Assembly (NCBI GenBank): GCA_002483145.1
Contig: DLHJ01000005.1
Span: forward strand, 1 to 64,000
Source: Cellvibrio sp. UBA7671
GTDB taxonomy: Bacteria; Pseudomonadota; Gammaproteobacteria; Pseudomonadales; Cellvibrionaceae
Length of the DNA stretch: 64,000 bases
Reading direction: 5' to 3'
Of this stretch, positions 1 to 22,781 are shown one piece after another. The notes under the pieces are model-generated. The model had not been told where the DNA came from. It worked only from the letters and a program-made list of their open reading frames with translations, and searched no databases. The first letter of the stretch is position 1, and each line of letters opens with the position of its first letter. Position numbers and translations under genes: made by a program.

Positions 1-429
1 AGTGGCGACATCAGCGCTGCCGGTGTAGCAACCCTCACCATTGACCTCAGCACTGTCAATACCGGTGTCGCCCTGCGCGATGAGCGTATGCGCGGCCTGT
101 TGTTTGATGTGACCAACTACCCCACCGCAACTGTGACCGTGGCTGTACCTGCCACCCTGATCAGCAGCCTGGCGGTTGGCCAATCCGCTACCACCGATAT
201 CTCTGCCAGCCTGAACCTGCACGGTGTGACCGGTGCGATTACCACCAAAGTCTCCGTCCAGAAACTGTCCGCTAACCGCGTATTGGTGCAAAGCCTGTCA
301 CCGATCCTCGTGAAAGCCGGCGATTACGCACTCACCGATGGTGTGGAAGCCCTGCGTGCAGCGGTGGGCATTGCCTCGATCAGTGTCGCCGTACCCGTGG
401 ACTTCGCGCTCGTCTTTGACGCCCGTTAA
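1..429 (+). CDS. CBM2-YceI secreted protein, C-terminal part only (5' end outside window)
   Basis: The reading frame is open from base 1 to the TAA at 427-429, so only the last 142 residues are present. They match almost residue for residue the C-terminal YceI-like domain of the protein at 7653-8714 (shared stretches such as ALRDERMR and [16 protein letters not shown]-like motifs). YceI domains are lipocalin-like barrels that bind isoprenoid quinones or similar lipids in the periplasm. By analogy with the full-length paralogue, the missing part should hold a signal peptide, a CBM2 and a serine linker. The next gene starts 27 bases downstream, so the two are probably co-transcribed. It resembles the Cellvibrio japonicus protein called Cbp2E. 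Confidence 0.85.
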   Translation, partial: SGDISAAGVATLTIDLSTVNTGVALRDERMRGLLFDVTNYPTATVTVAVPATLISSLAVGQSATTDISASLNLHGVTGAITTKVSVQKLSANRVLVQSLSPILVKAGDYALTDGVEALRAAVGIASISVAVPVDFALVFDAR

Positions 430-456
430 TTGGATGAAGCTTAGAGAGAACCTATC

Positions 457-3400
457 ATGAAAAAATTAATGAAACTGTCGATGCTCTCCAGCGGGTTAAT
501 GGCCCTGGGCATCATGGCATCCAGCGGCGTTAACGCCCAGGGTGCCTGTAGTGTGGCTTACGATACCGTCAACAGCTGGGGCAACGGTGGCCAATACAAG
601 GTCACTATTACCAACAACGCCACTGCCAAAACCAGTTGGGAACTCTGCTGGAGTTTTGCGGGCAATGACACTATCCCCAACCTGTGGGACGGTGTATTGA
701 CCCAAACCGGTAAAAACGTGTGTGTGAAAAATGCACCTTACAACCCCAACCTCGCGGCAAACGGTACAGCGACCTTTGGTTTCCTGGTGAATAACCCGGG
801 CACCATCCCCACCGCGTTTACCTTGAACGGCGCCGCCTGTGGTGGCAATGCCAGCTCAGTGGCCAGCAGCACCCCAAGCAGTGTGCCGACTACCAGCAGC
901 AGCCGCAGCAGCACACCGACCACTAGCAGCCGTAGCAGCAGTAGCGTCTCCGGTGCAGCTGCCCGCTGGTTACTCGATGCCACCAACTCCACCTTCAACT
1001 TCGTGACCGTGAAGAAAAGTACAGCCGGTGTGGAAACACCCGAAAGTATGACCTTCAGCCAGTTGCAAGGCACTGTGGCAGCCAATGGCCAGGCGACCCT
1101 GACCATTCCACTGGCCAGTATCAGCACCGGTAACGTGATCCGCGATCCACGCATGCAGAACCTGCTGTTTGAATCGGCTTACCTGCCCAACCTGCACTTC
1201 ACCACCCAGCTCGACCTGACCGCGATTGACGCTATGACTGCTGGCAGCATCGCGGTACAAAGCGTCACCGGTAACCTCGTGTTGCACGGGGTCGTCAAAT
1301 CAGTGGTGTTTGATGCATTGGTGGTTAAGCACGCCAATAACAGCGTCAGCTTCTCTCCCCGCAAACCGATCGTGATCAACTCGATTGATTTCGACCTGAA
1401 TGCCGGTGTGGAAGCCTTGCGCGCTGTCGCTGGCCTTTCAACCGTTGGCGAGAAAGTGCCGGTTTACTTCAAGATGTTCCTGAACCGCGACAATCCCACC
1501 AACGTGCCTGCCATTACCCTGGCCACTGCACCTGCAGCGGCAACCGGCCTGACCGGCACAGTGAGCAACGCCACTGGCGCTGCCAACCTGAACTGGGCTG
1601 ATGTCAGCGCGACTGAAACCGGCTTCCTGGTGCGCCGTAAAGGTGCCGATGGTCGTTGGGTAACCGCGAACAATGCCACCGCCAACAGCGTGAGCTACCT
1701 CGACAGCCTGACCGCCGCCGGCAGCTATGACTACAAAGTCATCAGCTACACCGACAGCATCCCGGCTGCAGCTACGGCGCCTTTGACCCTGGTGTATGCG
1801 GCAACCGGTTCTTCTGCTGGCACCACCTCCAGCGCCCCGATTACTTCTGCCAGTTCCTCCAGCAGAAGTGCAACATCGGTTAGCTCATCGAGTAGAAGTG
1901 CTACCTCCGTAAGCTCAGGCAGTTCAAGCAGTGTTACCTTCCTCGGTAATGCCACCACCGGTGGAAATATTTTCAAGACCAAAGGTTGTGCAGGTTGCCA
2001 CGAGGATCCGGATAGCGATGGCGTGTTTGAAGGCTTCGCGTTTAACGTGAATTCCTTTACCTATCCCACAAGATTCGCGGTCAATAACTACACTGACGCC
2101 AATGTTGCAGGACTGGCCACATTTATTAGCCAACAAATGCTTCCACGTGTGGGCGGTTGCACCGATGCTAACTGCGCGGACCATTTGGCAGCTTACCTCT
2201 GGTCACTTAAGGGCCGCACACAAACCGGCGCAGTAGCTTGTGATACAACATCACCCGTTAAATACGGTATGCGTTCGGTGAAACTGCTGACTTCTTTCGA
2301 ATACCACAACTCGTTGCAGGCATTGTTTAACAGAACACTGCCAGCCAACTTTGCCTCGAAAGAGTTGGCTAACGCCGACAAAACTGTTGCCAACTTGCCA
2401 AACCACACGACGGAGCCAGTATCTGAAGCGCGCTTGTTGTCTTACAAGAAAAACGCTGAAGATATCGCTAGTTGGGCAATTGCCAACAATGCAGTGACGC
2501 TGAACAACTGTGGTGATACCACCTCGGCAAACTGTGCAACCAGCTTCATCGACAACTTCGCCTACCTGGCCTTCCGTCGTCCATTAACTAACGACGAGAA
2601 AACCGAGTACAGCGCAATTGTTCGTAATGGCTCAACTGGCTTGCGCTGGGCGATTCAAACCGTATTGATGTCACCGCAATTCCTGTACCGCACCGAGCTG
2701 GGTATTCCGGTTAGTCAGGCGCGTTCACAATCCTGGGGTAATGGTTCAGTGTTCCAAAGCGCAGATGGTACTGCTTACGCGTTAGATCCTTACGAGTTTG
2801 CATCTGCACTGGCCTATATGTACACCGGCAGTGCACCTGACCGTACCCTGTTGAGCGCAGCAGCCAATGGTTCGCTTGAAAACGCCACGTCACTCGGACA
2901 ACAAATCGATCGTTTGCTCGATTCAGATCTGGGTAAAGCCCAAATTGGCCGCTTCGCTGGCTTGTGGTTCCGCACAGACAGCGTGGTTGATATGAGCCGT
3001 ACCGGTGGCGCCAACTTCAATCAAGCAGTAAAAGATTCGATGGCGCAGGAGATCCGCGAAATTTACAAATACGCGTTCTACAACAACCTGCCGTTCACCG
3101 ACATCTACACCGGCGATTACACCGTCCTCAACAGCACCTTGTCGCAGTACTACGGTGTAACCGGCGGTGGTACGAGCGCAACGGATTGGCGGATGGTGAA
3201 CACTGCCAACTCCAAACGCGGCGGTGTATTGGCTTCTGGCGCATTTATGACAGTGAATGCCCATGCAGGCCGCACCTCGCCAATTAAACGTGCTGTGCAT
3301 GTGCGTCAGGATATGCTGTGTCAGAACATCCCTCTGCCAACCTCGTTCGAGGACAACACCGGGCTGCGTGACAAAGCGGCTGCCGACGCTCAAAAAGCGC

Positions 3401-4002
3401 TGGAAGCCGGCAACCTGACCACGACCCAGTTCTACGATATGCAAACCGCTGTACCGGGAACACCGTGTGCCCAATGCCATAACGCGATTATCAACCCACT
3501 GTTTGCAGTGGATGATTTCGACCACTTGGGTATGCCTCGCGCGCTGAGCAACGGCAAAGTTGTACAGAAAGCACTGGACCTCAACGGCAACGAAGCGCGC
3601 ACAAATCTGGTTGAGGTGCCGATGGTTAACAACGGTGGCCGCCTGTTTGGCGCTAACGGTGTAGGAACTGTGGGCTTCAACGAAGTGAACAACGAAAAAG
3701 ATACTGGCTCACCCGGCATCGCATTCAACGGTTCAAAAGACTTGGGCAAAGTGATGGTGGCTAACAGCCTGCCAGGTATCAATGCGTGCCTGATCCAAAA
3801 ATCGTTCCGCTACGCGACAGGTTATTCGCTCAGCAGACAATTCCAGGACGACACTCAGGAACCAGCCCTATCAACCCAACAGCAAGGCCAACTGGCTTGC
3901 GTATCCGATGCGCTCAAAACCAGGCTCACCGCAAGCAATGGGAATCCGCGCGCCATGCTGAAAGAGTTGGGTATGTCTAACGTGATTCGTTTCCGCCGCT
4001 AA
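457..4002 (+). CDS. Secreted CBM2-YceI-FN3-cytochrome c-DUF1592/1588/1585 protein (Cbp2D-like, copy A)
   Basis: This is a 1181-residue exported multidomain protein. The order seen is: signal peptide (about 1-27); CBM2-like module with NSWGNGG (about 28-125); Ser/Thr linker (128-165); YceI domain (168-338); FN3 domain (about 350-445); second serine linker; a c-type haem site CAGCH at Cys511; a DUF1587-like segment near 605; DUF1595/DUF1592 (about 695-850, FRRPLT and SPQFLYR); DUF1588 from 921 (RGGVLASG) with a second haem site CAQCH at Cys1004; and DUF1585 (about 1090-1175). The DUF set is typical of planctomycete-type cytochromes of unknown role. The CBM should hold it on cellulose. I infer electron transfer at the cell surface, as proposed for Cbp2D of Cellvibrio japonicus. 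The start follows AGAGAG by 9 bases. The paralogue at 8736 has one more haem site. Confidence 0.9.
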   Translation: MKKLMKLSMLSSGLMALGIMASSGVNAQGACSVAYDTVNSWGNGGQYKVTITNNATAKTSWELCWSFAGNDTIPNLWDGVLTQTGKNVCVKNAPYNPNLAANGTATFGFLVNNPGTIPTAFTLNGAACGGNASSVASSTPSSVPTTSSSRSSTPTTSSRSSSSVSGAAARWLLDATNSTFNFVTVKKSTAGVETPESMTFSQLQGTVAANGQATLTIPLASISTGNVIRDPRMQNLLFESAYLPNLHFTTQLDLTAIDAMTAGSIAVQSVTGNLVLHGVVKSVVFDALVVKHANNSVSFSPRKPIVINSIDFDLNAGVEALRAVAGLSTVGEKVPVYFKMFLNRDNPTNVPAITLATAPAAATGLTGTVSNATGAANLNWADVSATETGFLVRRKGADGRWVTANNATANSVSYLDSLTAAGSYDYKVISYTDSIPAAATAPLTLVYAATGSSAGTTSSAPITSASSSSRSATSVSSSSRSATSVSSGSSSSVTFLGNATTGGNIFKTKGCAGCHEDPDSDGVFEGFAFNVNSFTYPTRFAVNNYTDANVAGLATFISQQMLPRVGGCTDANCADHLAAYLWSLKGRTQTGAVACDTTSPVKYGMRSVKLLTSFEYHNSLQALFNRTLPANFASKELANADKTVANLPNHTTEPVSEARLLSYKKNAEDIASWAIANNAVTLNNCGDTTSANCATSFIDNFAYLAFRRPLTNDEKTEYSAIVRNGSTGLRWAIQTVLMSPQFLYRTELGIPVSQARSQSWGNGSVFQSADGTAYALDPYEFASALAYMYTGSAPDRTLLSAAANGSLENATSLGQQIDRLLDSDLGKAQIGRFAGLWFRTDSVVDMSRTGGANFNQAVKDSMAQEIREIYKYAFYNNLPFTDIYTGDYTVLNSTLSQYYGVTGGGTSATDWRMVNTANSKRGGVLASGAFMTVNAHAGRTSPIKRAVHVRQDMLCQNIPLPTSFEDNTGLRDKAAADAQKALEAGNLTTTQFYDMQTAVPGTPCAQCHNAIINPLFAVDDFDHLGMPRALSNGKVVQKALDLNGNEARTNLVEVPMVNNGGRLFGANGVGTVGFNEVNNEKDTGSPGIAFNGSKDLGKVMVANSLPGINACLIQKSFRYATGYSLSRQFQDDTQEPALSTQQQGQLACVSDALKTRLTASNGNPRAMLKELGMSNVIRFRR
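1861..1920 (+). repeat. Two in-frame 30-bp repeats in the serine linker
   Basis: Two adjacent 10-codon units (1861-1890 and 1891-1920) each encode S-S-R-S-A-T-S-V-S-S or a near copy. They lie in the linker before the haem domain of the Cbp2D-like protein. The codons differ at several third positions, so the duplication is not very recent or the sequence is under selection for protein composition only. Confidence 0.8.
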
Positions 4003-4005
4003 GGC

Positions 4006-4035
4006 CTGAATGGTGGGGGCAACCCCACCATTCAG
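4006..4035 (+). promoter_or_regulatory. Intergenic hairpin with GCAA tetraloop between copy-A genes
   Basis: Arms 4006-4018 and 4023-4035 form a perfect 13-bp stem with a GCAA (GNRA-class) loop at 4019-4022. It starts 4 bases after the stop codon of the Cbp2D-like gene. No T-tract follows, so it is a poor intrinsic terminator. It more likely acts as an mRNA stability or processing element, or a partial terminator, that sets the ratio of the two proteins. The equivalent junction in copy B (12231-12238) is only 8 bases long and has no hairpin. Confidence 0.7.
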
Positions 4036-4078
4036 CGAGACAACCAAAAACAGAATTCTAAATCCAAGAGGTTTGGTT

Positions 4079-5446
4079 ATGAAAAAGATTGATAGCAAAT
4101 TTCGTCATATGCCCGAAGAGGATGCCCTTGAGGCGATGGAGCATCAGAAAAAGCTCGAAGAAGGTCCTGCAGCACTTAATGCATACTTAAAAGACGATTA
4201 TTACAGCGGCAACAAACAAATACGCGAAGACTTTGTTCGACAAGATCGCCGCCGCTTCCTTGACCTGATTGGTAAGTCCGGCATTGCAGCTGGTTTACTG
4301 AAAGGCTCTGCTTTAGTGGGCGGCATTTTGGCAAATCGCCATGCACTCGCGCAGAATGACATCAATAAACGCGTCGTATTCTGTTACCTGAATAGTGGTG
4401 CAGCAGCCGGCCAGTGGATGCCAACCAGCGCAAGCCAGATGAATCAGATAACTCGCCCCTACGGCCCGCAAGGTTATGCGGTTTCTGATATCTGTCACTT
4501 CCGCCAAGTTGATGTAATCACCTCTGGTCATGCGACTGCACTTAACTCATTAGGAGTTACAGATTACAACTCGCCCACGATGGATAAACGTATTGCATCC
4601 GTGCTCGGTAGTACGACCCCACGTTCGTCTATCTATTTAGGTGCAAAAGCAACCACCAACGGCACTCTATGTAGCAATATCGGCCCTTGCCAGGACAACC
4701 CGACCCAGGCATTGGCAAGTATTTTCAACGGTACTGGTGGCGGTGGTGGAACAACACCCGATACTACCTATGCACTTTCTTATGATGCTCAATTGCGTGC
4801 GCTTGACTCCATCAAGAGCAAACTCAGCACCCAAGAATATGCGCGCTATCAGGAGCACATTGATTCATTGAAGAAAATCAAAACCAATACCGCCAACGAA
4901 AATAGTGGCGGTGGTGGCACCACAACCAACTGCGGCAGCACCATCACACCGAGTATGGCCAACATGCAGGCGACCGGCAAATCACAAGCCGACATTATTG
5001 TCGCAGCGCTTGCCTGTGGTATTACAAAAGTGGCGACACTGCAGTTGGGCAACCACCAAGGTGACTGGACTGGGCATAACACGACTTGGAGCCAGGATGC
5101 CCATCAGGCATGTCACGGCGCACCTAACAATAGTGCGTTTGTCGAAATGTGGCGCTACCTGAACGATGTACCCGCTTACCTGATTGATAAATTGCGCAAA
5201 ACATCCGGCCCGGATGGTCAACCACTCATCAATTCCACCGTGGTTGTCCAAGTCACTTGTATGGGTAACGGTATGGATCATACCTCGGGTAATGGCCCAT
5301 TTATCGTCGCCACTCAAATGCCTGGTTTTGCAAGTGGATTCTCTGCTCGCTCAGGCGGCAATGTGTATGACCTAAATGGAGCTATTCCCAAGGGTATGGG
5401 TCTGACCGGCATCAACCTCGGCAGCAGCACTCTGGGTCTCGTGTAA
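4079..5446 (+). CDS. DUF1552-family Tat-exported protein (copy A, divergent)
   Basis: The 455-residue product aligns by eye along its length with the clearer DUF1552 protein at 12239. Matching points are RVVFCYLNSG against RTLFIYHPNG, and a shared core ALACGITKVA against TLSCGITRSM. Start 4079 is chosen because AGAGG precedes it at a good distance; an in-frame upstream ATG at 4010 lies inside the hairpin. A twin-arginine motif (DRRRFLDLIG) sits unusually deep, after about 55 hydrophilic residues, and is followed by a hydrophobic stretch ending in ALAQ. Two Gly-rich loops (GGGGG and GGGG) are absent from copy B. DUF1552 proteins habitually accompany DUF1592 cytochromes; their biochemical role is unknown to me. 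Confidence 0.8.
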   Translation: MKKIDSKFRHMPEEDALEAMEHQKKLEEGPAALNAYLKDDYYSGNKQIREDFVRQDRRRFLDLIGKSGIAAGLLKGSALVGGILANRHALAQNDINKRVVFCYLNSGAAAGQWMPTSASQMNQITRPYGPQGYAVSDICHFRQVDVITSGHATALNSLGVTDYNSPTMDKRIASVLGSTTPRSSIYLGAKATTNGTLCSNIGPCQDNPTQALASIFNGTGGGGGTTPDTTYALSYDAQLRALDSIKSKLSTQEYARYQEHIDSLKKIKTNTANENSGGGGTTTNCGSTITPSMANMQATGKSQADIIVAALACGITKVATLQLGNHQGDWTGHNTTWSQDAHQACHGAPNNSAFVEMWRYLNDVPAYLIDKLRKTSGPDGQPLINSTVVVQVTCMGNGMDHTSGNGPFIVATQMPGFASGFSARSGGNVYDLNGAIPKGMGLTGINLGSSTLGLV

Positions 5447-5472
5447 CGCTCTTTGTTTGACAAGCTGTGAAC

Positions 5473-5514
5473 AAACGCCTTCTACTGCCATGCTGTAGAA
5501 GGCGTTTTGTTTTT
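5473..5514 (+). terminator. Intrinsic terminator after copy A module
   Basis: A 13-bp stem (5473-5485 with 5495-5507) with a 9-base loop is followed by a T-rich tract to 5514. It closes the copy-A operon 26 bases after the DUF1552 stop codon. Confidence 0.9.
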
Positions 5515-5576
5515 CAAAAAACTATTTAGCAATTGCCCAACCAACACTTTTCAAGCCTGACTCTGGTAAAGACCGA

Positions 5577-6953
5577 ATGAATAATAACAAGCAATATCCT
5601 GAGCATCTTATTGCAGCACTCCGATGCCCAAACTGCGGTAGCAGCGCACAGCAGGGATTTCAATTCAACGCTCTCCAATGCACTCACTGCGCAACCAATT
5701 ACTTTTCATTGGGCGAGGTGCCCTGTTTATTTCCTGCCGGGATCCATCAGAAACTGATCTGGCAACATCAAACAGCCAACCTGCAGTACATGGCGCAACA
5801 AGGCCTCGCGGCTTTGCATGAATCCCTGTCGCGCTACGATTTAACTGATACAACTCGCCAGCGGCTTACCGAGATACAAACAGCGAGTCAGGTTAATCTC
5901 GACACCATTCTTTCGCTCATGCAAAAACACGGCATCAATCCAATCCCGGATGAGCAATTAAGCCAAATGAACCCCGGTGATTTGAGTGAATATTTTGATT
6001 TGCTATTACGCGACTGGGCATGGGACTCAACCACAAATGCAAACCCGGAAAATACCGCTGCGCTCGCACGGACATTGGCTGACATTGAAAAGCTACCGCA
6101 AAAACCGGCACGCATATTAGTGCTCGGTGCAGGCGCCGGTCGATTGAGTTGGGATCTGCATGTCCGCTTGCAACCGGAATATACCTTGGCGTTAGATGCA
6201 AATCCGCTTGTACTGGCAGCTGCCGATGAGCTGGTGCATCAACGCCAGACAATTGCGATTGGTGAATTCAAAAATTTTCCACAAATTGGATTTCAGCACG
6301 CACACTGTTGGCAATTGGAGCCACCACACGATACTGACAATGCGCGCTCAACCTGGTTTCCATTGGGCGCCAATGTATGGCAACTGCCTTTTGCGCGCGA
6401 CAGTTTTGATTTGATTATTACCCCGTGGTTTATCGATGTTAACGGCGGAGATGTCAGGGATTTAATCGCAATTATTTATGAAAACCTCGCTCCGGGAGGG
6501 CATTGGTTAAATTCAGGTCCCTTGTTATTCACCCGTCATTTGCCGGTGCAATTAAAATACACGGCGACAGAAATCAAAGAATTTTTGTCACTCGCTGGAT
6601 TTACATTAATTGAAGAATCTATCACCAATACAGATTACCTGCGCTCGCCATTGGAGGCGCGCTTTCGCCAGGAACAGGTTTGGACTTTTCGAGCCGCAAA
6701 ACCCGAAGCGCGACAGGAAGCACCAATTATCGCAGGTGCACTAACAGCCTGGTTGGTGATGCATCATCTGCCCATCCCGAAAAACAATTATTCCAGCAAG
6801 GATTCGCACCCATTGATCGATGCGATATTGTCGCTCGTCGATGGCAATCGCTCGATCAATGATATTTGTTACGAAGTGGGTCCGCATCTTCCGCAAGATA
6901 TTCCAGTAAAAGATGTAGTTGTCACTTTATTCGGGCAAATACTTTCTGAATAA
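5577..6953 (+). CDS. Zinc-ribbon SAM-dependent methyltransferase-like protein
   Basis: The 458-residue protein has an N-terminal zinc ribbon (CPNCGS and CTHC pairs, about residues 18-38) like Trm112 or RNA-methyltransferase fingers. A Rossmann SAM-binding motif follows at about 178 (VLGAGAGRLSWDL), with a motif-IV-like segment around FDLIITPWFIDV. The C-terminal 60 residues (DGNRSINDICYEVG) look like a small PqqD- or winged-helix-type binding domain. There is no signal peptide, so it should be cytosolic. It lies between the two redox modules and runs in the same direction, but a terminator separates it from copy A. The substrate cannot be deduced. Link to the redox modules is by position only. 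Confidence 0.75.
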   Translation: MNNNKQYPEHLIAALRCPNCGSSAQQGFQFNALQCTHCATNYFSLGEVPCLFPAGIHQKLIWQHQTANLQYMAQQGLAALHESLSRYDLTDTTRQRLTEIQTASQVNLDTILSLMQKHGINPIPDEQLSQMNPGDLSEYFDLLLRDWAWDSTTNANPENTAALARTLADIEKLPQKPARILVLGAGAGRLSWDLHVRLQPEYTLALDANPLVLAAADELVHQRQTIAIGEFKNFPQIGFQHAHCWQLEPPHDTDNARSTWFPLGANVWQLPFARDSFDLIITPWFIDVNGGDVRDLIAIIYENLAPGGHWLNSGPLLFTRHLPVQLKYTATEIKEFLSLAGFTLIEESITNTDYLRSPLEARFRQEQVWTFRAAKPEARQEAPIIAGALTAWLVMHHLPIPKNNYSSKDSHPLIDAILSLVDGNRSINDICYEVGPHLPQDIPVKDVVVTLFGQILSE

Positions 6954-7652
6954 TCCAACAACATATTATCCAACAAAAATAGGCGGCGCATATTGCAACA
7001 TTAAAAGAGAAAAATACGACAAATTGCGGCAATAAACTCATCATTTTTATTGCCGTTGTCGTTCAGAAATCCAGTAGCAAACAATGAATTTCACGCGCCG
7101 AATTTTTTATAGATGAGAAATAAAAATACAGGCAATTAAATATCAAGACATAAGTGATAATTTTTGTAAACTGCAACCTGACACAAAAATGCCCTGATAT
7201 AGAAGAATAATAAAATCCCTAAAAAACAAGGCATTTTTTTCATTAAAGCTATCTGCTTCGCCAAAAACCACATTGAATATTTTCTTTCTATCGACTAGTT
7301 TTTTTAAGAGAATACCAAGCGCTGGCTTATCGCATAACTCACCTTATTTTTATCTATGCAATAAATTCGCATTTAAAAACAACAATAAATTTGTCTGTCA
7401 CCCTCCCAATGACAGCGGCACTATCTTAAATTGCCTCCATAGCGGTTTATCACACGTATCGATTTGTCAGTGACCCGGATTGCTAACAAGCTGCGTGTTT
7501 ATCCTATTTTCATCGCAATGACATCCTTTAGAAATAATTCTTGGGATTTCGTTTGATGCGAAATGGTAGCGCAATCATTTGGATATAAATAAAAAGGTCA
7601 ACCGTAACAACCGTGCCGAAGTGATTCGGTATTTACTTTCGAGGAAGAAACT
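6954..7652. other. 699-bp AT-rich intergenic region before copy B
   Basis: No convincing gene is present. It holds a perfect 10-bp inverted repeat (7027-7036 with 7046-7055), a 9-bp inverted pair with a long 36-base spacer ending in a T-run (7185-7193 with 7230-7238), and a TATAAA box at 7584-7589 without a good -35. The length and AT content suggest a regulatory region for the copy-B operon. No clear CRP-type dyad was seen. Confidence 0.6.
7027..7055 (+). terminator. Inverted repeat downstream of methyltransferase gene
   Basis: A perfect 10-bp stem (7027-7036 with 7046-7055) has a 9-base loop. It lies about 75 bases after the methyltransferase stop. The T-tract afterwards is poor, so termination is possible but not assured. 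Confidence 0.4.
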
Positions 7653-8714
7653 ATGAGTAGCTTCAACGCTTCTGCAATAACCCCTCGCCTGGCAGGTGCT
7701 AAAAACCGCACCATCTATGCATTATGGGGTTTTCTAACACTATCGGTGTTATCCACCCAAGCCCATGCAGGTTGCCAATATCTGGTAACCAATCAGTGGG
7801 GCAACGGGTTTTCCGCCACCATAAAAATAACCAACTCAGGTGCTAGCGCTATCAACGGCTGGGATATTAATTGGCGCTATAGCGGCGACAATCGTATCAC
7901 CAGCAGTTACAACACTACCCTCACGGGCAGCAACCCCTACAACGCCAAAAACCTCAGTTGGAATAGCACCATCCAACCCAACCAGACAGTAGAGTTTGGT
8001 GTACAGGGGACAAAGGGAGCGGCAGCCGCTGAAGTGCCTGTTATCAATGGCGCGGCTTGTGCGACGCCATTGTCTTCTTCAGCGGCTTCATCATCGCGAG
8101 CGAGTAGCTCGGCAATTTCATCCTCAGTTGTTTCATCATCGTCCATTGCTCCCAGCTCAAGCAGCAATTCCAGCTCTTCAGCAGTTAATACGGCAACATG
8201 GAGTCTGGATAGCAGCGCGTCTTACCTGAACTTTGTCACTACCAAAAACACCCACAATGTTGAAGTGCACAACTTCACCCGCATTAGCGGTGCAATCAGT
8301 GCGACGGGTGTTGCCACTTTGGCGATCGACCTCAGCAGTGTGAATACCAATATTGCCCTGCGCGATGAACGCATGCGCGATCTGCTCTTTCAGATCACCA
8401 GCTTCCCGACCGCCACCGCCACACTGAATTTGCCAAATGGATTGCTCACCAGCCTTGCTGTGGGTGACACCAGTGAAATCCAGCTCACCGCGAGCCTCGA
8501 CCTGCATGGTGTGACCTCCCCGGTCGCAACCAAAGTGTCGGTGCAGCGGCTGTCTGCCACCCGCATCCTCGTTCAAAACCTCTCGCCTATTGTGGTGAAT
8601 GCGCCGGATTACGCGCTCGCAGCCGGCGTAGAGGCATTGCGCGCTGCAGTCGGTATCGCTTCGATTAGCTCGGCGGTACCCGTGGATTTCACCCTCGTCT
8701 ATGACGCCCGTTAA
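7653..8714 (+). CDS. Secreted CBM2-YceI protein (Cbp2E-like, copy B)
   Basis: The 353-residue product has a long export signal (hydrophobic core [12 protein letters not shown], likely cleavage after AHA at about residue 39). A classical family 2 carbohydrate-binding module follows (about 41-140; [14 protein letters not shown], conserved Trp residues), then a serine linker (about 142-182) and a YceI domain (185-353). CBM2 modules bind crystalline cellulose or chitin; YceI barrels bind quinone-like lipids. I infer a cellulose-tethered carrier of a small redox lipid. GAGGAAG lies 9 bases before the ATG. The next gene begins 21 bases downstream. It is the full-length paralogue of the gene truncated at the window start. 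Confidence 0.9.
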
Positions 8715-8735
8715 TCGGACTGGAGAACAATCGAG

Positions 8736-11700
8736 ATGAAAAAATTATTGAAACTGTCGATGCTTTCCCTGGGGCTGATAGCCTCCGGCAGCACATTCGC
8801 ACAGGGTGCCTGTAGTGTGAATTACACCACTACCAATTCCTGGGGTAATGGCGGCCAGCAGGATCTGGTTATCACCAATACCAGCGCCGCCAAAACCAGT
8901 TGGCAACTTTGCTGGACATTTAACGGCAACGAAGTAATTAACAATCTGTGGAACGGCAGTTACACCGCAAGTGGTAAAAATGTGTGCGTAAAAAATGCGG
9001 GATACAACGGCAACTTGCCCGCCAATGGCACTGTCGCTTTTGGTTTTACCCACACCAATGCCCCGGGCGCCAAACCCACCAGCTTCACTCTCAACGGTGT
9101 TGCCTGTGGCGGCACCGCCAGCAGCAGTGCACCTAGCAGCATGCCAACCACAAGTAGCAGCCGGAGCAGCAGCAGTGGCTTCACTACCAGTCGCAGTACC
9201 AGCAGCAGTAGCCTTCCCGCAAACGCCGCTCGCTGGTTGCTAAACGACAGCAAATCGGTGCTCAACTTTGTATCGGTCAAAAATACCGATGTCGCGGAGA
9301 CTTTCACCTTTGGCCAACTGCAAGGCACTGTTTCAAGCGGCGGCCAAGCAACCCTGAGTATCCCGCTCGCCAGTATTTTGACCGGGGTAGCTATCCGCGA
9401 TACACGCATGCAGAGCATGTTGTTTGAATCCAACTACCTGCCCAACCTGCACGTCACTACCCAGTTGGATCTCGCCGCGCTTGATGCCATGGCTGCAGGT
9501 AGCACCAGCACCCTGAGCCTCAGCGGCAGCTTGATCCTGCACGGTGTGATCAAGCCACTAACGTTTGATACCCTGGTGATCAAGCATTCCAACAACAGCG
9601 TTAGCTTCTCACCGCGCAAGCCGATCGTGATCAACGCCACTGATTTCGATTTGAATGCCGGCATTGAATTACTGCGTCTAACCGCAGGTGCCACCAGCAT
9701 CGGTGAGAAAGTCCCGGTCTACTTCAAGGTGTTTTTGACCAAAGACAATCCCACCAACTTACCTGCGATTAGCCTTGCACCAGTGCCCAACACACCATTG
9801 AATTTAATGGGTAGTGTCAGCCAAGTCAGCGGCAATGCCACTCTTAACTGGGCCGATACCAACAGCAACGAAACCGGCTTTTTGGTACGTCGCAAAGGAC
9901 TGGATGGTCGTTGGACAACCAAAGCCAATCTTGGCGCCAACTTCTCAACCTACGTGGATAGCCTGCTCAACACAGGCGGCGGTTTCACTTACAAGATCAT
10001 TAGTTACTCCGGCAGCATTCCGTCGCTCCCCAGCAATGAAGTCACTTTGGGGCTCAACGGTATTGACTCATCGGCTTCCAGCCAGAGCTCAGTTAGCAGT
10101 TCAGTCAGCAGTTCAGTGACCAGCTCCTCCAGCAGCGTTGCTTACGTTGGCGATGCCGCACGCGGCAAAATACATTGGGAAGACGCAGAGATCGGCTGTA
10201 AGTTTTGCCATGCCGTGAACCCCGATGGCACCGCCGGCTCAAGCCTGAGCAAGATCGACCCGAGAAACCTGCGCTTTACTACAGCACTGGGGATGGCGAA
10301 ATACATTGAAGAAAATATGCCCAAAGGCAATGTGGGAGTTTGCACCGGCCAATGCGCGGCAGATACAGCGGCCTATTTCCAATCCTTGATGCCAATAACC
10401 GTGTCGTCATCAATGAGTTCAAGCAGTCGCCTGTCATCAAGCAGTTCGTCATTAAGCAGCTCCGCCAGCTCGAAAAGCTCTGGCAGTTCCAGCAGCGCAC
10501 CAGTGTTGAACGGCGCCCAGCTCTATGTTGATAAAGGTTGTGCCAACTGCCATGGCGCACGCGGCGATAACCCAATGCGCCCGATTGTGCTTGACCGCTG
10601 GACCCGCTCGACCTTGATCAGCAAGATCGATGCGACTATGCCCTTGGGCAACCCCACCGCCTGTGTTGGCGATTGCGCGACAGCTATTGCGGATTACATT
10701 CTCAGTTGGAAACCGATTGTGAGCTGTAATGCCGATGAGGATGTCTTGCCACGCCGCCTGCGGCTGCTGACCAACCGCGAATACGCCAATACCATCAACG
10801 ATTTGTTGAATATCAGCACTGGCGCCGCTATCGCTGCCAGTTTTGAGCCTGACACTGAAGTAAAAGGGTTCGATAACAATGCTGAAGCCAGCAAGATCAA
10901 CAATGGCCGTATGGATGCTTACTGGAACGCGGCAAAACAAGTCTCTGAAACCGTCAGCCTAACCAACCTGATGACTTGTTCCACCGGAACTGCCCGCGAC
11001 CAATGTGCCAATACCTTTGTGCCAGCATTTGGTAAAAAAGCATTCCGTCGTCCGCTAGTAGCGGCTGAGCAAACATCCTATAGCAACCTGTTTCGCTTGG
11101 GTGCGAGTAACGAAGCGGGCGCACGGCTGGTTATCCAATCGATGTTGTCGTCGCCCAACTTTCTCTATCGCGCTGAAATTGGCAGCGTTGTGAGTGGTAC
11201 AAGCAACCTGACAGCTTACGAAACCGCCAACCTGCTCTCTTACACTTTCGCCGGTTCTATGCCGGATGCAACCCTGTTTACCGAAGCCGACAACAATCGC
11301 CTGACGACGCCAGTACAACTGCGTACCCAGGCCGAGCGCTTGCTGGCGACGACCAAAGCGGCCAGCCAGTTCAGCCACTTTGGTCTGCAATGGTTGCATG
11401 TGGATGATGTCGCCAACCTGCAGCGCGATAAGACCCTGTATCCACAATTTACCCAGGCGATTGGCACGGCGATGAAGACTGAGCTGGAAACCTTCCTGAA
11501 CGAGCTGTTCCTGAAGCCCGGCTACAAAATGGCAGATGTGTTCAACCCCGGCTTTACCTTCGTGAATGGCACACTCGCCAGTTATTACGGTATGACTGGT
11601 GTCACCGGCACCAACTTCCAGAAAATCAACACCAATAGCCAACGCGGCGGTGTACTGGCGATGGGGGCGGTCACGGCAACACTGGCAACAGTCACTGGTT

Positions 11701-12230
11701 CACACCCAATCCATCGCGGTCTGTTAGTGCGCCGTAATCTGCTCTGTCAGGAATTTGCGCCGCCACCACCAAACGTGGGCGAAGTCGAACCTCTGAACCC
11801 CAACAAGCCGACCCGCGAGCGCTTTGCGGCGCATACCAACAATCCGAACTGCCAATCATGTCACCAGTACATCGACGATATTGGTTTCGGTTTTGAAAAC
11901 TATGATGCCGTGGGCCGCTTCCGCACCACCGAGGGCAACAACATTGCCATCAATGCGAGCGGCACTATTTCCGGTTTGGCGGTCATGACTGAGTCGGACA
12001 ACTACTCGTTTACCGACTTGCGCGGTCTGTCCACTGTGCTCGCCACAGCCGGCGCTGAACCCACCTCAAAATGCCTGACCAAGCAGTACCACCGCTTTGC
12101 CACCGGCATTTCCGAACCGAATGAATGTGCGGTTAACGCGAGTTATTCACGCTGGCAGAACAAGTCCACGGATCTGCGCGACATGATGCTCGAAACCGTT
12201 ACCTCACCCACCTTCCTGACCCGCAAATAG
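8736..12230 (+). CDS. Secreted CBM2-YceI-FN3-(cytochrome c)2-DUF1592/1588/1585 protein (Cbp2D-like, copy B)
   Basis: This 1164-residue paralogue of the protein at 457 has the same order: signal peptide (1-23), CBM2-like module, serine linker, YceI (about 165-335), FN3 (about 345-440), then haem domains, DUF1587 (near 670), DUF1595/1592 (from about 766), DUF1588 (RGGVLAMG, about 970) and DUF1585. It has three CxxCH haem sites: CKFCH at Cys488, CANCH at Cys602 and CQSCH at Cys1039. Copy A has only two. A serine linker separates the first two haem domains. The N-terminal coding sequence is nearly identical to copy A. It should be an exported, cellulose-associated multihaem protein; electron donor and acceptor are unknown. 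Confidence 0.9.
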   Translation: MKKLLKLSMLSLGLIASGSTFAQGACSVNYTTTNSWGNGGQQDLVITNTSAAKTSWQLCWTFNGNEVINNLWNGSYTASGKNVCVKNAGYNGNLPANGTVAFGFTHTNAPGAKPTSFTLNGVACGGTASSSAPSSMPTTSSSRSSSSGFTTSRSTSSSSLPANAARWLLNDSKSVLNFVSVKNTDVAETFTFGQLQGTVSSGGQATLSIPLASILTGVAIRDTRMQSMLFESNYLPNLHVTTQLDLAALDAMAAGSTSTLSLSGSLILHGVIKPLTFDTLVIKHSNNSVSFSPRKPIVINATDFDLNAGIELLRLTAGATSIGEKVPVYFKVFLTKDNPTNLPAISLAPVPNTPLNLMGSVSQVSGNATLNWADTNSNETGFLVRRKGLDGRWTTKANLGANFSTYVDSLLNTGGGFTYKIISYSGSIPSLPSNEVTLGLNGIDSSASSQSSVSSSVSSSVTSSSSSVAYVGDAARGKIHWEDAEIGCKFCHAVNPDGTAGSSLSKIDPRNLRFTTALGMAKYIEENMPKGNVGVCTGQCAADTAAYFQSLMPITVSSSMSSSSRLSSSSSSLSSSASSKSSGSSSSAPVLNGAQLYVDKGCANCHGARGDNPMRPIVLDRWTRSTLISKIDATMPLGNPTACVGDCATAIADYILSWKPIVSCNADEDVLPRRLRLLTNREYANTINDLLNISTGAAIAASFEPDTEVKGFDNNAEASKINNGRMDAYWNAAKQVSETVSLTNLMTCSTGTARDQCANTFVPAFGKKAFRRPLVAAEQTSYSNLFRLGASNEAGARLVIQSMLSSPNFLYRAEIGSVVSGTSNLTAYETANLLSYTFAGSMPDATLFTEADNNRLTTPVQLRTQAERLLATTKAASQFSHFGLQWLHVDDVANLQRDKTLYPQFTQAIGTAMKTELETFLNELFLKPGYKMADVFNPGFTFVNGTLASYYGMTGVTGTNFQKINTNSQRGGVLAMGAVTATLATVTGSHPIHRGLLVRRNLLCQEFAPPPPNVGEVEPLNPNKPTRERFAAHTNNPNCQSCHQYIDDIGFGFENYDAVGRFRTTEGNNIAINASGTISGLAVMTESDNYSFTDLRGLSTVLATAGAEPTSKCLTKQYHRFATGISEPNECAVNASYSRWQNKSTDLRDMMLETVTSPTFLTRK

Positions 12231-12238
12231 GAGTCATC

Positions 12239-13570
12239 ATGAAAAGACGTTCATTACTCAAAGCCATTGCGGCCGGTTCTTTAGCGATGACCCCCTTGGC
12301 AACCATGTTGGCGCGCTCAGCGATGGCGGCCGAAGTACAGCGGATCCGCACGCTCTTTATCTACCACCCCAACGGCTGTGTGCCCGATGTATTCTTTCCG
12401 CGCGCCGGTGCACTCGCCAACGCCAGCTTTCCAGCCATGACCGCCCCCTTGCAAGCCGTTGCCAACCAGTTGGTCTTTTTGGATGGCATAGGCTACGAAG
12501 GCCAGGCCAATACCCACGAAGGTGGCGCGCTTAAATGCCTTACCGGCGTAGCCAGTTCGTCTGCGGGCGCCTCATCCATAGAGGTGCAAATGGGTCGGGA
12601 GGATTGGGCCAACCGCGCCAGCTCCGGTATCACCCGCCCCTCAGTACAAATGGGAGTCGGCACCAAATGGGGCAGCGATACCAGCAAACGCATCAGCTAC
12701 GACAACGGTACCAGCCTGCATCCAGTCGATGACCCGCGCATTTTGTATCCGCAGTTATTTGGCGGGACTAATAACGGTGTCGATACCAACCAGATACAGG
12801 TGTTGGCGCGCGCGCGTGAAGACCTCAACCGCTTGAGCACCCAGCTGGGCAGTATCGAGCGCGAGCGGCTGGATCAGCATGTCGCCGCGTTGGATGTATT
12901 GGAGCAGCGCCTGAACAGTGCTTCTATGGGGGGATGCCTGGACGTCAGCACCAGCATCAAGCCGCGCGTCGATGCGATTGTCGGTGGTGAGGAACAAGCG
13001 CTTTGGGCAACCCAGGTGCTGGCGAATATCTCCGCCATCCAGCAAGACATTGCAGTCGCCACGCTCTCCTGCGGTATCACCCGCAGCATGGCGTTTATGT
13101 ACGGTGTGCCCGTATCGCCGATTGTGGTACCCGGCACTGGTACCGGCGACCACGACTTGTCGCATCAGGACGCTGCCGCGCATACCACCAGCAAGGTGTG
13201 GTGGATGGGGCAAATCCGTCAGTTCATTCAAAAATTGGCGGCCACGCCCGACGTCAACGGCAGCTTGCTGGACAACACCATCATCTGCACCGTATCCGAC
13301 CTCGGCCACGGCAACTACCACAACCATCACCGCATCCCCATGTTCCTCGCGGGCGGTAAAAATGCGGGGTTGATTACGGGACGCTCGGTGGATTTGCGCC
13401 CGCTCGGTGAAGTCAACAAACGTTGGGGTGACCAAACCAGTACCCAAGGTGGCGTCAACCACACCAACGTGCTGATGACCATTGCCGAGAAAGCAGGCTA
13501 CCGCAACGTCGTCATGCCGACTGCGAATGGCCGCATCAACAACGTGTGGGTAAATGGAACTGGTTTGTAA
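12239..13570 (+). CDS. DUF1552-family Tat-exported protein (copy B)
   Basis: The 443-residue protein starts 8 bases after the previous stop, with TAGGAG as ribosome-binding site. The N-terminus carries a twin-arginine signal (KRRSLLKA followed by a hydrophobic stretch and SAMAAE). The rest matches the DUF1552 pattern: LFIYHPNGCVPD near the start, LVFLDGI, an ATLSCGITRSM segment and HNHHRIPMFLAG near the C-terminus. In planctomycetes and proteobacteria such proteins are encoded next to DUF1592 cytochromes, as here. Tat export suggests that it folds, perhaps with a cofactor, before secretion. The reaction is not known to me. Confidence 0.85.
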   Translation: MKRRSLLKAIAAGSLAMTPLATMLARSAMAAEVQRIRTLFIYHPNGCVPDVFFPRAGALANASFPAMTAPLQAVANQLVFLDGIGYEGQANTHEGGALKCLTGVASSSAGASSIEVQMGREDWANRASSGITRPSVQMGVGTKWGSDTSKRISYDNGTSLHPVDDPRILYPQLFGGTNNGVDTNQIQVLARAREDLNRLSTQLGSIERERLDQHVAALDVLEQRLNSASMGGCLDVSTSIKPRVDAIVGGEEQALWATQVLANISAIQQDIAVATLSCGITRSMAFMYGVPVSPIVVPGTGTGDHDLSHQDAAAHTTSKVWWMGQIRQFIQKLAATPDVNGSLLDNTIICTVSDLGHGNYHNHHRIPMFLAGGKNAGLITGRSVDLRPLGEVNKRWGDQTSTQGGVNHTNVLMTIAEKAGYRNVVMPTANGRINNVWVNGTGL

Positions 13571-13652: not shown

Positions 13653-14906
13653 TTATTGGCTGAAAACCCTTCTAACCTCATCCGCAATAATCTGCGCGCC
13701 CTGCTCTACTACGCTTGCATCCTGACAATAAGTCACACGAATGCATTCGCGAGAATGTTGCCACTCACCCGCCAAACCGGGGAAAAAATGATGGCCGGAT
13801 ACCACTAAAACGCCACGCGCTTTTAACCGTTGATAAAGTTCTTCGCTGCTAATGGGTAAATTTCTAAACCAGAGCCACAGAAAAATCGCGCCTTCCGGTT
13901 TGTGGATAAAACACGGTAGATCGCCGAGATATTTTTTAAAAGTCGCCACGGCGTGCTCCATACGCGCGCGATAAAAAGGCGCGACGACTTCGCGGCTCAA
14001 TTGCAGAATTTTTCCATCCGCCAATAAATGCCGCGCGAGAGCGGGGCCGAAATTTCCAGTCGCTAAACTTAAAATCGTATTGGCTTTGGCGAAGGCGTTA
14101 ATCACATCGGGGTTGGCGATAACAATGCCCGTGCGTGCACCGGGCAAACCCAACTTGGAAAGGCTGAGCACGAGAATGGTGTTCTCATTCCAATGGGGTT
14201 GCGCATCGGCAAATAGAATATTCGGGAATGGAGTTCCATAAGCGCCATCGACAATAAACGGGACTTGATGCGCGCGCGCCAGTTCATCCAGTTTTACTAA
14301 TTCTTCGTCGCTAATCACGTTACCGGTGGGATTAGTGGGGCGCGACACGCAGAGCGCGCCTGTCTCACTGGTAATCTTGAGCTGTGAAAAATCGACGTGA
14401 TATTTAAAAAAACCGTCGGGCAGCATTTCAATGCTCGGGCGCGTTGATGTAAAAAAATCCGCGCTGATTCCCAAATCGTTATACCCCAAATACTCCGGTG
14501 TGAGCGGCAATTGGATACGCTTTTTTGAGCCGTCGGCATAATCGCCTGCGAACAAATTAAACAATACAAAAAATGCGGATTGGCTGCCATTGGCGAGCGC
14601 GATATTCGCACGCGAAATCGGCCATTGATATTCGTTGTGCAGTAAATTGGCAATGGCGTCGAGCAATTCAGCATCACCCTGCGGCGGCTGGTAAACCCCT
14701 AAAAGTTGATGGGTTTCATGTGGATTAGTGAGCGTTGCGCGCAGTGCATCTTCAAACACTTGCTCCATTTCTGGAATGCGCGCCGGGTTGCCGCCCCCCA
14801 TAAAAATCATATCGGGATTTACGCGCAGCGCCTCACCCAAATCATCCATTAGCGTGACTATGCCAGCATCAGTGCAGAGTTTTTGGCCGAAGCGCGAGAA
14901 TTGCAT
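13653..14906 (-). CDS. avtA: Valine--pyruvate aminotransferase
   Basis: The 417-residue fold-type I PLP aminotransferase matches AvtA from its first residues (FSRFGQKLCTDAGIVTLMDD). It transfers the amino group between valine and pyruvate in the cytosol. The PLP lysine is Lys251 in LSLSKLGLPGAR, and the substrate-region motif GGGNPARIPEME is present. Length is normal for the family. It stands alone on the minus strand between a convergent operon and a receiver-domain gene. Confidence 0.92.
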   Translation of the reverse strand: MQFSRFGQKLCTDAGIVTLMDDLGEALRVNPDMIFMGGGNPARIPEMEQVFEDALRATLTNPHETHQLLGVYQPPQGDAELLDAIANLLHNEYQWPISRANIALANGSQSAFFVLFNLFAGDYADGSKKRIQLPLTPEYLGYNDLGISADFFTSTRPSIEMLPDGFFKYHVDFSQLKITSETGALCVSRPTNPTGNVISDEELVKLDELARAHQVPFIVDGAYGTPFPNILFADAQPHWNENTILVLSLSKLGLPGARTGIVIANPDVINAFAKANTILSLATGNFGPALARHLLADGKILQLSREVVAPFYRARMEHAVATFKKYLGDLPCFIHKPEGAIFLWLWFRNLPISSEELYQRLKARGVLVVSGHHFFPGLAGEWQHSRECIRVTYCQDASVVEQGAQIIADEVRRVFSQ

Positions 14907-22644: not shown

Positions 22645-22781
22645 GGTGATTACCTCGCAGAACATTGCCCGATACGGCGTATCTTTACGAAAGTCTGATC
22701 AATCACTATAGCGCTCCTTGCTGATAGTGTTCTGTGGTCAACAGCTCATAAGATCGGTGTGCGCTCACTTTTTATCGCAAC

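What the first reader, a model, noticed from the sequence alone, without database searches (positions are those of the whole stretch)
1..13570. Duplicated cellulose-tethered redox module (CBM2-YceI / CBM2-YceI-cytochrome-DUF1592 / DUF1552)
Seen: the same three-gene order occurs twice about 8.3 kb apart, with clearly homologous proteins. Known: CBM2 binds cellulose, YceI barrels bind quinone-like lipids, CxxCH binds haem, and similar CBM2 redox proteins (Cbp2D, Cbp2E) are known in Cellvibrio japonicus. Inferred: the set forms a complex that carries electrons to or from the cellulose surface, for example to lytic polysaccharide monooxygenases, with the DUF1552 protein as a Tat-exported partner. 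DUF1592 and DUF1552 have no known function, so this is the best candidate for an undescribed system here.
Basis: partly seen in the sequence, partly recalled or inferred. Interest (0 to 1): 0.8.

Follow-up and report, generated by a model that had tools for sequence, protein, structure and literature searches.

The report
Cellulose-anchored haem operons with unknown partner
A cellulose-eating soil bacterium carries two diverged copies of an operon for secreted, cellulose-binding haem proteins, and in nearly all related loci examined the haem head is encoded beside one partner protein, which hints at a way of attacking plant fibre that need not rely on the known copper enzymes.

Summary
The observation largely holds: two three-gene units 8.3 kb apart; the first gene of unit 1 is cut by the contig start. 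Genes 1 and 2 are the known Cbp2E/Cbp2D pair of Cellvibrio. The third gene, DUF1552, also follows cbp2D in C. japonicus; my searches found no mention of that. New here: (1) DUF1592 and DUF1552 are near-obligate partners (7 of 7 DUF1592 genomes in 398 Pseudomonadota; 84 of 86 X132 genes adjacent, the other two at contig ends). (2) DUF1552 resembles the alkaline phosphatase superfamily and keeps three histidines; X132 has no solved fold relative. (3) X132 diverges with DUF1552 rather than with the YceI of its own chain. (4) In one group X132 lost its haem and its partner lost all three histidines. (5) 9 of 18 genomes with CBM2-YceI units showed no AA10 LPMO, so LPMO supply is unlikely to be the universal role. 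(6) A CARNMT1-like methyltransferase gene follows the Cys-variant DUF1552 of copy 1. Best reading: a CBM-targeted two-protein redox head acting on polysaccharide; the chemistry is unproven.

The parts
1..429 (+). Cbp2E-like gene of copy 1, C-terminal YceI (X158) part only; the 5' part lies beyond the contig start
   Evidence: 69% identical to copy 2
457..4002 (+). Cbp2D-like protein, copy 1: CBM2 (aa 31-128), YceI (171-339), FN3-like region, X183-type haem motif (C511), X132 (DUF1595/1592/1588, weak 1587/1585) with haem motif C1004
4010..5446 (+). DUF1552 (HXXSHH), copy 1; Tat-type RRRFL motif; three conserved His kept, Asp354 replaced by Cys
5577..6953 (+). Methyltransferase related to carnosine/protein-histidine N-methyltransferase CARNMT1, with a zinc-ribbon-like N-terminus; homologues in my loci follow Cys354-type DUF1552 genes
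   Evidence: PF07942 E 3e-16; human CARNMT1 structure 5yf0 E 3e-8; linkage
7653..8714 (+). Cbp2E-like protein, copy 2: CBM2 - YceI
8736..12230 (+). Cbp2D-like protein, copy 2: CBM2, YceI, FN3-like region, two X183-type haem motifs (C488, C602), X132 with haem motif C1039
10728..12230 (+). X132 part of copy 2, modelled at pLDDT 93.4, pTM 0.92; no fold match in the PDB
12239..13570 (+). DUF1552, copy 2; Tat-type KRRSLLK; H305, H309, H361, D354; fold like the alkaline phosphatase superfamily

Best explanation
The region holds two units (in a related one-contig genome, a four-unit tandem array) of an operon for secreted, cellulose-anchored haem redox complexes. The CBM2-YceI-FN3 front of Cbp2D, with Cbp2E, is the targeting and quinone-side part. 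The reactive head is a two-protein unit: X132 (a helical domain of novel predicted fold with one c-type haem motif) and the Tat-exported DUF1552 protein (fold like the alkaline phosphatase superfamily, in which a set of three conserved histidines, probably a single-metal site, replaces the usual two-metal hydrolase site). Most likely electrons move between quinol (YceI) or, in fused relatives, GSDH-type sugar dehydrogenases, through X183 to the X132 haem and the DUF1552 site, where polysaccharide is oxidatively attacked or modified. This need not involve an AA10 LPMO, though the module may also reduce one where present. Shown here: gene content, near-obligate pairing, joint divergence, joint loss, predicted folds, occurrence without AA10. 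Inferred: physical complex, metal in DUF1552, electron direction, reaction.
For: Pairing: in 398 Pseudomonadota genomes DUF1552 in 8, DUF1592 in 7, all 7 within the 8 (Fisher 2.7e-14); in 120 family genomes 69 and 70, the same set plus one marginal. Adjacency: 84 of 86 X132 genes, the remaining two at or near contig ends; 41 of 41 in a second, partly overlapping set. Joint divergence in 27 Cellvibrio Cbp2D-type units: X132 against DUF1552 rho 0.84 (0 of 2000 relabellings, global or within genome); X132 against the YceI of its own chain 0.25 (0.02 within genomes); DUF1552 against YceI 0.34 (0.33). Joint loss: the haem-less X132s of L026, L137, L141 sit with DUF1552s lacking all three His; X132 there keeps 49 of 59 conserved columns, the ten changes including CxxCH, R330, R306, E390. 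DUF1552 fold: 12 PDB chains at E <= 1e-3, by title all sulfatases, alkaline phosphatases or LtaP-type enzymes. Context: fusions to GH5, GSDH, Cip1-like, CBM26. Carriers without AA10. Literature: cbp2D/E deletion abolishes growth in a multi-mutant lacking lpmo10B; Teredinibacter X183s do not feed their LPMO.
Against: No biochemistry on DUF1552. Foldseek TM-scores for DUF1552 are low (0.21-0.40 over the 12 best) despite good E-values. The metal site is read from conservation: no coordinates were available, and the PhoA profile alignment covers 13 columns only (E 0.082). X132 and DUF1552 genes are adjacent, so joint divergence could reflect inheritance as one DNA block. The joint loss is one orthologous group, hence one event; one further haem-less pair kept HHH (L033, split frame) and seven haem-bearing pairs did not read HHH. 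AA10 co-occurrence in the family and LPMO activation by CjX183 in vitro fit LPMO donation. AA10 absence rests partly on MAGs of unknown completeness.
Confidence: 0.5

Rival explanations
1. The module is an electron donor for AA10 LPMOs: YceI-bound quinol reduces X183/X132, which reduces the LPMO copper on the cellulose surface; DUF1552 is an accessory assembly or docking protein.
For: CjX183 activates two bacterial LPMOs (PMC8981238, passages); AA10 enriched with DUF1552 in the family (58 of 69 against 19 of 51) and with DUF1592 in the phylum sample (4 of 7 against 21 of 391).
Against: 9 of 18 genomes with CBM2-YceI units have no AA10 match; G069 (100% complete, one contig) has the operon and no AA10; Teredinibacter X183s do not feed the cognate LPMO; cbp2D/E deletion still matters without lpmo10B; the nearest own-genome AA10 gene on a module contig is about 44 kb from the module.
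Confidence: 0.25
2. DUF1552 is an active hydrolase (phosphatase/sulfatase-like) that removes substituents from polysaccharide, and X132 is a structural or electron-sink partner; no metal redox.
For: Fold matches include carbohydrate sulfatases and LtaP.
Against: In the one stretch aligned to PhoA the H370 position is Met/Leu; at the place where I expect the nucleophile, position 97, His stands in 53 of 63 (placement inferred). Loss of the His set goes with haem loss, unexpected for an independent hydrolase.
Confidence: 0.12
3. The head works in the dehydrogenase direction: X132/DUF1552 or a fused GSDH takes electrons from sugars and passes them through X183 to quinone or the cell, i.e. extracellular sugar oxidation rather than chain cleavage.
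For: GSDH-X183-X132 fusions; their GSDH parts are related to the separate GSDH-CxxCH protein at window 20383-22665.
Against: The two window units and the other Cbp2D-type proteins that I scanned by Pfam (window, L037) carry no dehydrogenase domain; the growth loss on insoluble cellulose suggests a depolymerising role.
Confidence: 0.13

Closest known systems
Cbp2D / Cbp2E of Cellvibrio japonicus (CAZy X158, X183, X132 domains)
   Same: Same domain order CBM2-YceI-FN3-X183-X132 and CBM2-YceI, same gene order. L122 is the C. japonicus locus: residues 470-560 match the solved cbp2D X183 domain 7b21 nearly letter for letter, and its 1122 aa equal the published length.
   Different: The window has two diverged units; copy 2 has an extra X183-type haem motif and copy 1 a linked methyltransferase. 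The DUF1552 third gene and the DUF2214-like membrane gene found beside Cbp2E in many loci are not mentioned in the sections and passages that I read.
Planctomycete-type PSCyt3/PSD proteins with a neighbouring unknown gene (Verrucomicrobia, PMC5615132)
   Same: PSD/PSCyt3 domains, some with CBMs, usually beside a family of unknown genes (section 13 read).
   Different: There the linkage is noted without function; fold, residues, joint loss and AA10 were not treated in that section. DUF1552 is in the text as searched but not in the main text shown.
TERTU_3803 / TERTU_2913 of Teredinibacter turnerae
   Same: X183 and X132 domains, one with CBM2/CBM10 and a part predicted as PQQ dehydrogenase (PMC10916295, passages).
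   Different: No YceI in the architectures described in those passages; their X183s did not support the LPMO.
E. coli yceJ-yceI
   Same: YceI next to a putative cytochrome b561 gene, compared with the DUF2214-like membrane gene (H9 in 18 of 18, H100 in 17 of 18 distinct sequences) beside Cbp2E in many Cellvibrio loci.
   Different: No CBM, no haem c motif, no DUF1552; the DUF2214-like protein is not shown to bind haem or quinol.
CARNMT1 and the fungal LPMO N-terminal histidine methyltransferase
   Same: Methylation of a metal-finger or metal-site histidine (PMC12275196, PMC10349129: abstracts and outlines).
   Different: The fungal enzyme is a different, membrane-anchored one; the substrate of the window methyltransferase is unknown.

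Membership tests
Cbp2D/Cbp2E redox proteins | CBM2 + YceI (X158) in both proteins | tested here: met
   for copy 2 and for Cbp2D of copy 1; Cbp2E of copy 1 is cut by the contig start, only YceI seen
Cbp2D/Cbp2E redox proteins | X183 c-type cytochrome and X132 at the C-terminus of Cbp2D | tested here: met
   copy 2: phmmer to 7b21 E 1.8e-7 and 8q1w E 4.5e-8; both copies: CxxCH positions, DUF1595/1592/1588
Cbp2D/Cbp2E redox proteins | needed for growth on insoluble cellulose | not testable with these tools
   published for C. japonicus
AA10 LPMO electron donor | an AA10 gene present wherever the module occurs | tested here: not met
   9 of 18 genomes without match, completeness not told; G069, 100% complete. 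The window's own genome has 4 AA10
AA10 LPMO electron donor | electron transfer to an LPMO | not testable with these tools
   in print positive for CjX183, negative for the TtX183s
Alkaline phosphatase superfamily (DUF1552) | common fold | tested here: met
   Foldseek on the AF2 model: 12 chains at E <= 1e-3, though TM-scores are only 0.21-0.40
Alkaline phosphatase superfamily (DUF1552) | two-metal site with Ser/Thr/Cys nucleophile | tested here: inconclusive
   position of PhoA H370 is Met/Leu; three conserved His; nucleophile position only inferred
CARNMT1-type methyltransferase (5577-6953) | sequence family CARME | tested here: met
   PF07942 59.9 bits against cut-off 27; 5yf0 E 3.1e-8
CARNMT1-type methyltransferase (5577-6953) | methylates protein histidine | not testable with these tools
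   none

The most novel reading that the evidence does not exclude
X132-DUF1552 is a new class of oxidative polysaccharide-attacking enzyme: a two-protein complex in which a c-type haem of novel fold drives a mononuclear three-histidine metal centre built in an alkaline-phosphatase scaffold, aimed at cellulose, starch or other glycans by exchangeable CBMs, and independent of copper LPMOs. In the Cys variant of copy 1 a CARNMT1-like enzyme methylates a metal-site histidine in the cytoplasm before Tat export, a bacterial counterpart of the protective histidine methylation of fungal LPMOs.
Probability: 0.2. Interest if true: 0.94.

Novelty: new variant of a known kind. Interest (0 to 1): 0.74.

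Why it matters
How Cbp2D/E act is an open question in print: the single mutants grow worse on cellulose than the lpmo10B mutant, and a direct cutting role has been proposed without a named catalytic partner. This work names a candidate that one deletion can test: the DUF1552 gene directly behind cbp2D. It gives residues to change (H305, H309, H361 of DUF1552; haem motif, R330, R306, E390 of X132), argues that the function does not rest on AA10 LPMOs alone, and gives two large families of unknown function (DUF1592/1588 and DUF1552) a joint, testable role. If the chemistry is oxidative it would be a further route into crystalline polysaccharide, with uses in biomass conversion.

Tried and rejected
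LPMO donation as the universal role: set aside on AA10 distribution. Recent simple duplication of the whole unit: rejected for the window, because fronts are 60% and heads 24-28% identical. In genome G095 two units share a block of at least 3,301 bp at 99.6% DNA identity while their heads belong to different clades. The front tree does not mix throughout: fronts of the copy-2 type and of most C9-type units also group by type; mixing is clear for the G095, G079 and copy-1-type units; and the tree tool warned of long branches meeting in the X132 and DUF1552 trees. Solved relatives of X132: by sequence one marginal hit (2asf, E 0.094), by fold none (best E 0.36). Solved relatives of DUF1552 by sequence: best E 0.025, a tailspike, not credible. 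A PqqD-like C-terminus of the methyltransferase: one weak match, E 0.034, in 1 of 4 C-termini, not used. NCBIfam gave an exoglucanase model through the CBM2 parts and weak matches. Plasmid tblastn: 55 records, none covering 80% of the query, all under 60% identity. Fisher tests are not corrected for phylogeny. Mirror-tree test: 27 of 46 units used (19 without a full YceI or X132 left out); over all 46, X132 against DUF1552 is 0.74. Pairs against the joint-loss rule: L033 (no haem motif, HHH kept; its X132 frame is split); seven haem-bearing pairs not reading HHH, two truncated or broken (L046, L100) and five with a substituted or shifted His (L091, L093, L104, L105, L078).
Full report
What is there. 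The window is the first 64 kb of contig C4 of a 5.04-Mb genome whose closest named relatives in my scan are Cellvibrio. Two operon-like units lie on the plus strand. Unit 1: Cbp2E-like end (1-429, cut by the contig start), Cbp2D-like (457-4002), DUF1552 (4010-5446), then a methyltransferase (5577-6953). Unit 2: Cbp2E-like (7653-8714), Cbp2D-like (8736-12230), DUF1552 (12239-13570). Pfam gives CBM2, YceI and, in the C-terminal half, DUF1595/1592/1588 with DUF1587 and DUF1585 (weak in copy 1); I treat this half as the region that the CAZy literature calls X132 (one search shows DUF1587 in the Cbp2D figure legend). The X183 cytochromes of copy 2 match the solved 7b21, 8q1w and 8q1v domains. The same genome holds 5 DUF1592, 6 DUF1552, 10 YceI and 4 AA10 matches; the only AA10 on a module contig is about 44 kb from that module.

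Known part. Genes 1 and 2 are relatives of C. japonicus Cbp2E and Cbp2D. There a DUF1552 gene of 402 aa starts 48 bases after the end of cbp2D on the same strand. The single cbp2D or cbp2E deletions slow growth on filter paper; in a quadruple mutant lacking three cellulose genes and lpmo10B, removing either abolishes growth, and the authors propose a Cbp2D/E heterodimer that cuts cellulose by a new mechanism (PMC12542752: outline, abstract, sections 3, 13, 14, 19, 22 read). X183 of Cbp2D reduces LPMOs slowly (PMC8981238, passages); the Teredinibacter X183s do not support their LPMO (PMC10916295, passages). Two consecutively numbered ORFs with Cbp2D- and Cbp2E-like best hits (c194919_g2_i1_5 and _4) are in a wheat-straw metasecretome table (PMC6004670, passages). 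In the held library DUF1552 occurs in two papers, one on Rhodopirellula transcription (passages) and one on Verrucomicrobia; a joint search with DUF1592 found none; the five PSD/PSCyt3 DUF numbers occur in three papers; the mixed search listed four papers, none of whose passages that I opened couples this gene to Cbp2D. The Verrucomicrobia paper notes that PSCyt3 genes usually lie next to a family of unknown genes (section 13). The 2014 Gardner paper did not appear in the listings and was not seen.

The third gene is a near-obligate partner. In 398 Pseudomonadota genomes DUF1552 was found in 8 and DUF1592 in 7; all 7 also have DUF1552, and the eighth is a marginal match (Fisher 2.7e-14). None of 14 control genomes has either. 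In 120 family genomes 69 have DUF1552 and 70 DUF1592, the same genomes plus one marginal. A scan of named genomes with an X132 alignment kept the best 80 of 209 relatives, 78 loci. Together with the window and own-genome loci, 84 of 86 X132 genes (one short fragment dropped from 87) have a DUF1552 ORF beside them on the same strand, two of them upstream (L093, L104); the other two X132 genes run to, or nearly to, a contig end. In further Cellvibrio loci, fetched because they hold DUF1552, it was 41 of 41 (some of these are the same loci as before under another handle).

Carrier and head. Between the window copies the CBM2-YceI-FN3 front of Cbp2D is 60% identical, the X183-X132 end 27.6% and DUF1552 24%. 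Over 27 Cellvibrio Cbp2D-type units, X132 identity tracks that of the separate DUF1552 protein (rho 0.84; 0 of 2000 global and 0 of 2000 within-genome relabellings reach it; 0.64 within genomes) more than that of the YceI domain in its own chain (0.25; 19 of 2000 and 72 of 2000; 0.02 within genomes); DUF1552 against YceI is 0.34 (4 and 8 of 2000; 0.33 within genomes). In the trees, head types recur across species and match between X132 and DUF1552; fronts partly follow type and partly mix. In genome G095 (one contig), which has a tandem array of four units, two units share at least 3,301 bp at 99.6% DNA identity; the block ends inside Cbp2D at about residue 475, before the X132 heads, which belong to different clades. 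So heads seem to travel as a cassette with DUF1552 behind a front that can be homogenised. The limit of this argument is that the two head genes are physically linked.

Folds. AlphaFold2 on a 65-row alignment gives X132 at mean pLDDT 93.4 and pTM 0.92; Foldseek finds nothing significant in the PDB (best E 0.36). The second aligner, VIA-align, was not available, so a missed distant match is possible. DUF1552 (63 rows) comes out at pLDDT 82.3, pTM 0.80; the 12 PDB chains at E <= 1e-3 are by title sulfatases, alkaline phosphatases or LtaP-type enzymes, with TM-scores of only 0.21-0.40. In the alignment RR (62 of 63) marks a Tat-type signal; H305 (60), H309 (63) and H361 (61) are nearly invariant, Asp or Glu stands at 354 in 58, and C233 (62) and C278 (63) are conserved. 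A profile alignment to E. coli PhoA covers 13 columns (E 0.082) and sets D354 on PhoA D369, with Met/Leu where PhoA has H370 (PhoA ligand names recalled and checked against the sequence). From that I infer that H305, H309 and H361 take the places of the Zn1 ligands D327, H331 and H412 and that the second metal site is gone. This is inference; I had no coordinates.

A natural knock-out. Three orthologous units (L026 in this genome, L137, L141) have an X132 without the haem motif. Their DUF1552 partners read Ala-Asn-Asn in place of the three His, while of 124 pairs 113 have both the haem motif and HHH (exceptions under Tried and rejected). The X132 of these units keeps 49 of 59 conserved columns; the ten changes include the haem motif, R330, R306, E390 and G396. 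The DUF1552s also change at E207, H214 (which is Asn in one haem-bearing unit too), F174, D270 and a few others, but keep the RR motif and both Cys. This looks like loss of one joint active site with the folds kept. It is one event seen in three genomes.

Targets and electron sources. X132 proteins occur fused to GH5 cellulase (L031, L085, L097), to GSDH with CBM2 (L038, L039), and in C. japonicus to four CBM26 starch modules plus GSDH with a DUF1552 gene behind (L114); Cbp2E occurs fused to GH5 (L029) and to GH5 plus a Cip1-like domain (L090, L107). That GSDH is of PQQ type is family knowledge, not tested. A small membrane gene, with DUF2214 similarity below the cut-off in 3 of 4 scanned, lies beside module genes in 24 ORFs of my loci (18 distinct), mostly upstream of Cbp2E, in two genomes downstream, including C. 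japonicus (L122:3562-4194) and Teredinibacter (L037). E. coli yceI has a putative cytochrome b561 gene beside it. The gene is absent before unit 2 and cannot be seen before unit 1.

LPMO test. AA10 is enriched with DUF1552 in the family (58 of 69 against 19 of 51; Fisher 1.4e-7) and with DUF1592 in the phylum sample (4 of 7 against 21 of 391, P 4e-4; without the own family 2 of 5 against 20 of 390, P 0.03). None of these is corrected for descent. I then searched 35 genomes behind the 78 loci; 18 of them hold a Cbp2D with both CBM2 and YceI. Of these 18, 9 have no AA10 match (L051, L052, L053, L057, L060, L065, L066, L067, L072), 2 only weak ones (L064, L071) and 7 good ones. Completeness is not told; three of the nine are from named strains (Catenovulum agarivorans YM01, Catenovulum maritimum Q1, Alteromonas sp. 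KUL49), the others are MAGs or uncultured isolates, one of 1.6 Mb. At least five of the 18 are also in the family sample. Genome G069 (100% complete, one contig) has the full operon and no AA10. So AA10 supply is unlikely to be the universal role, though it may be one role.

Methyltransferase. The gene at 5577-6953 matches PF07942 (59.9 bits) and the human CARNMT1 structure (E 3e-8). Among the ORFs of my module loci homologues were found at five places, each within 1.5 kb behind a DUF1552 with Cys at position 354; 5 of 6 such DUF1552s have it and 0 of 113 others with room downstream (8 more were cut; 127 in all) (Fisher 3.3e-8). Genomes at large were not searched for it. Four of the five are close relatives (DUF1552 63-97% identical) and L034 is distant (27-30%), so this amounts to about two independent cases. 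CARNMT1 is a protein histidine methyltransferase acting on C3H zinc fingers (abstract), and fungal LPMOs carry a methylated His that protects them from auto-oxidation (abstract). Methylation of a DUF1552 histidine in the cytoplasm before Tat export is a bold but testable reading.

Verdict. The two units are new members of the Cbp2D/E kind with new features. The strongest new claim is that Cbp2D acts with DUF1552 as a matched redox head; the chemistry is open.

Noticed in passing
window 20383-22665 (-): GSDH-family protein with CxxCH motif near the C-terminus; 29-42% identical to X132-containing fusion proteins in relatives; a possible electron partner.
   Followed up: partly
window 22859-25095 (-): Gluconate-2-dehydrogenase subunit 3 and GMC oxidoreductase genes; a similar pair lies near another module of the same genome (L024:1-1734).
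   Followed up: no
window 26286-28121 (-): GH9 cellulase gene about 13 kb from the modules.
   Followed up: no
window 13653-14906 (-): Aminotransferase gene that also neighbours module loci of relatives (10 ORFs of my loci, some duplicates, 85-94% identical), so the module locus seems to have a fixed place.
   Followed up: partly
L026:7368-10876, L137, L141: CBM2-X132 protein without haem motif beside a DUF1552 without the three His, in three Cellvibrio-type genomes; may have a non-catalytic role.
   Followed up: partly
L025:5950-7612: FecR (Pfam) and a probable ECF sigma factor (by eye) beside a rearranged module (Cbp2E on the opposite strand) and a GH49-like gene; suggests signal-dependent control.
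   Followed up: no
G000:C15:1-1099 (L027) and window 1: Two contigs begin inside module genes, as expected if near-identical array repeats break the assembly; a further unit is probably missing.
   Followed up: partly
L122:3562-4194: DUF2214-like membrane protein with two conserved His upstream of cbp2E in C. japonicus and beside Cbp2E in other loci; possible quinol or haem b component.
   Followed up: partly
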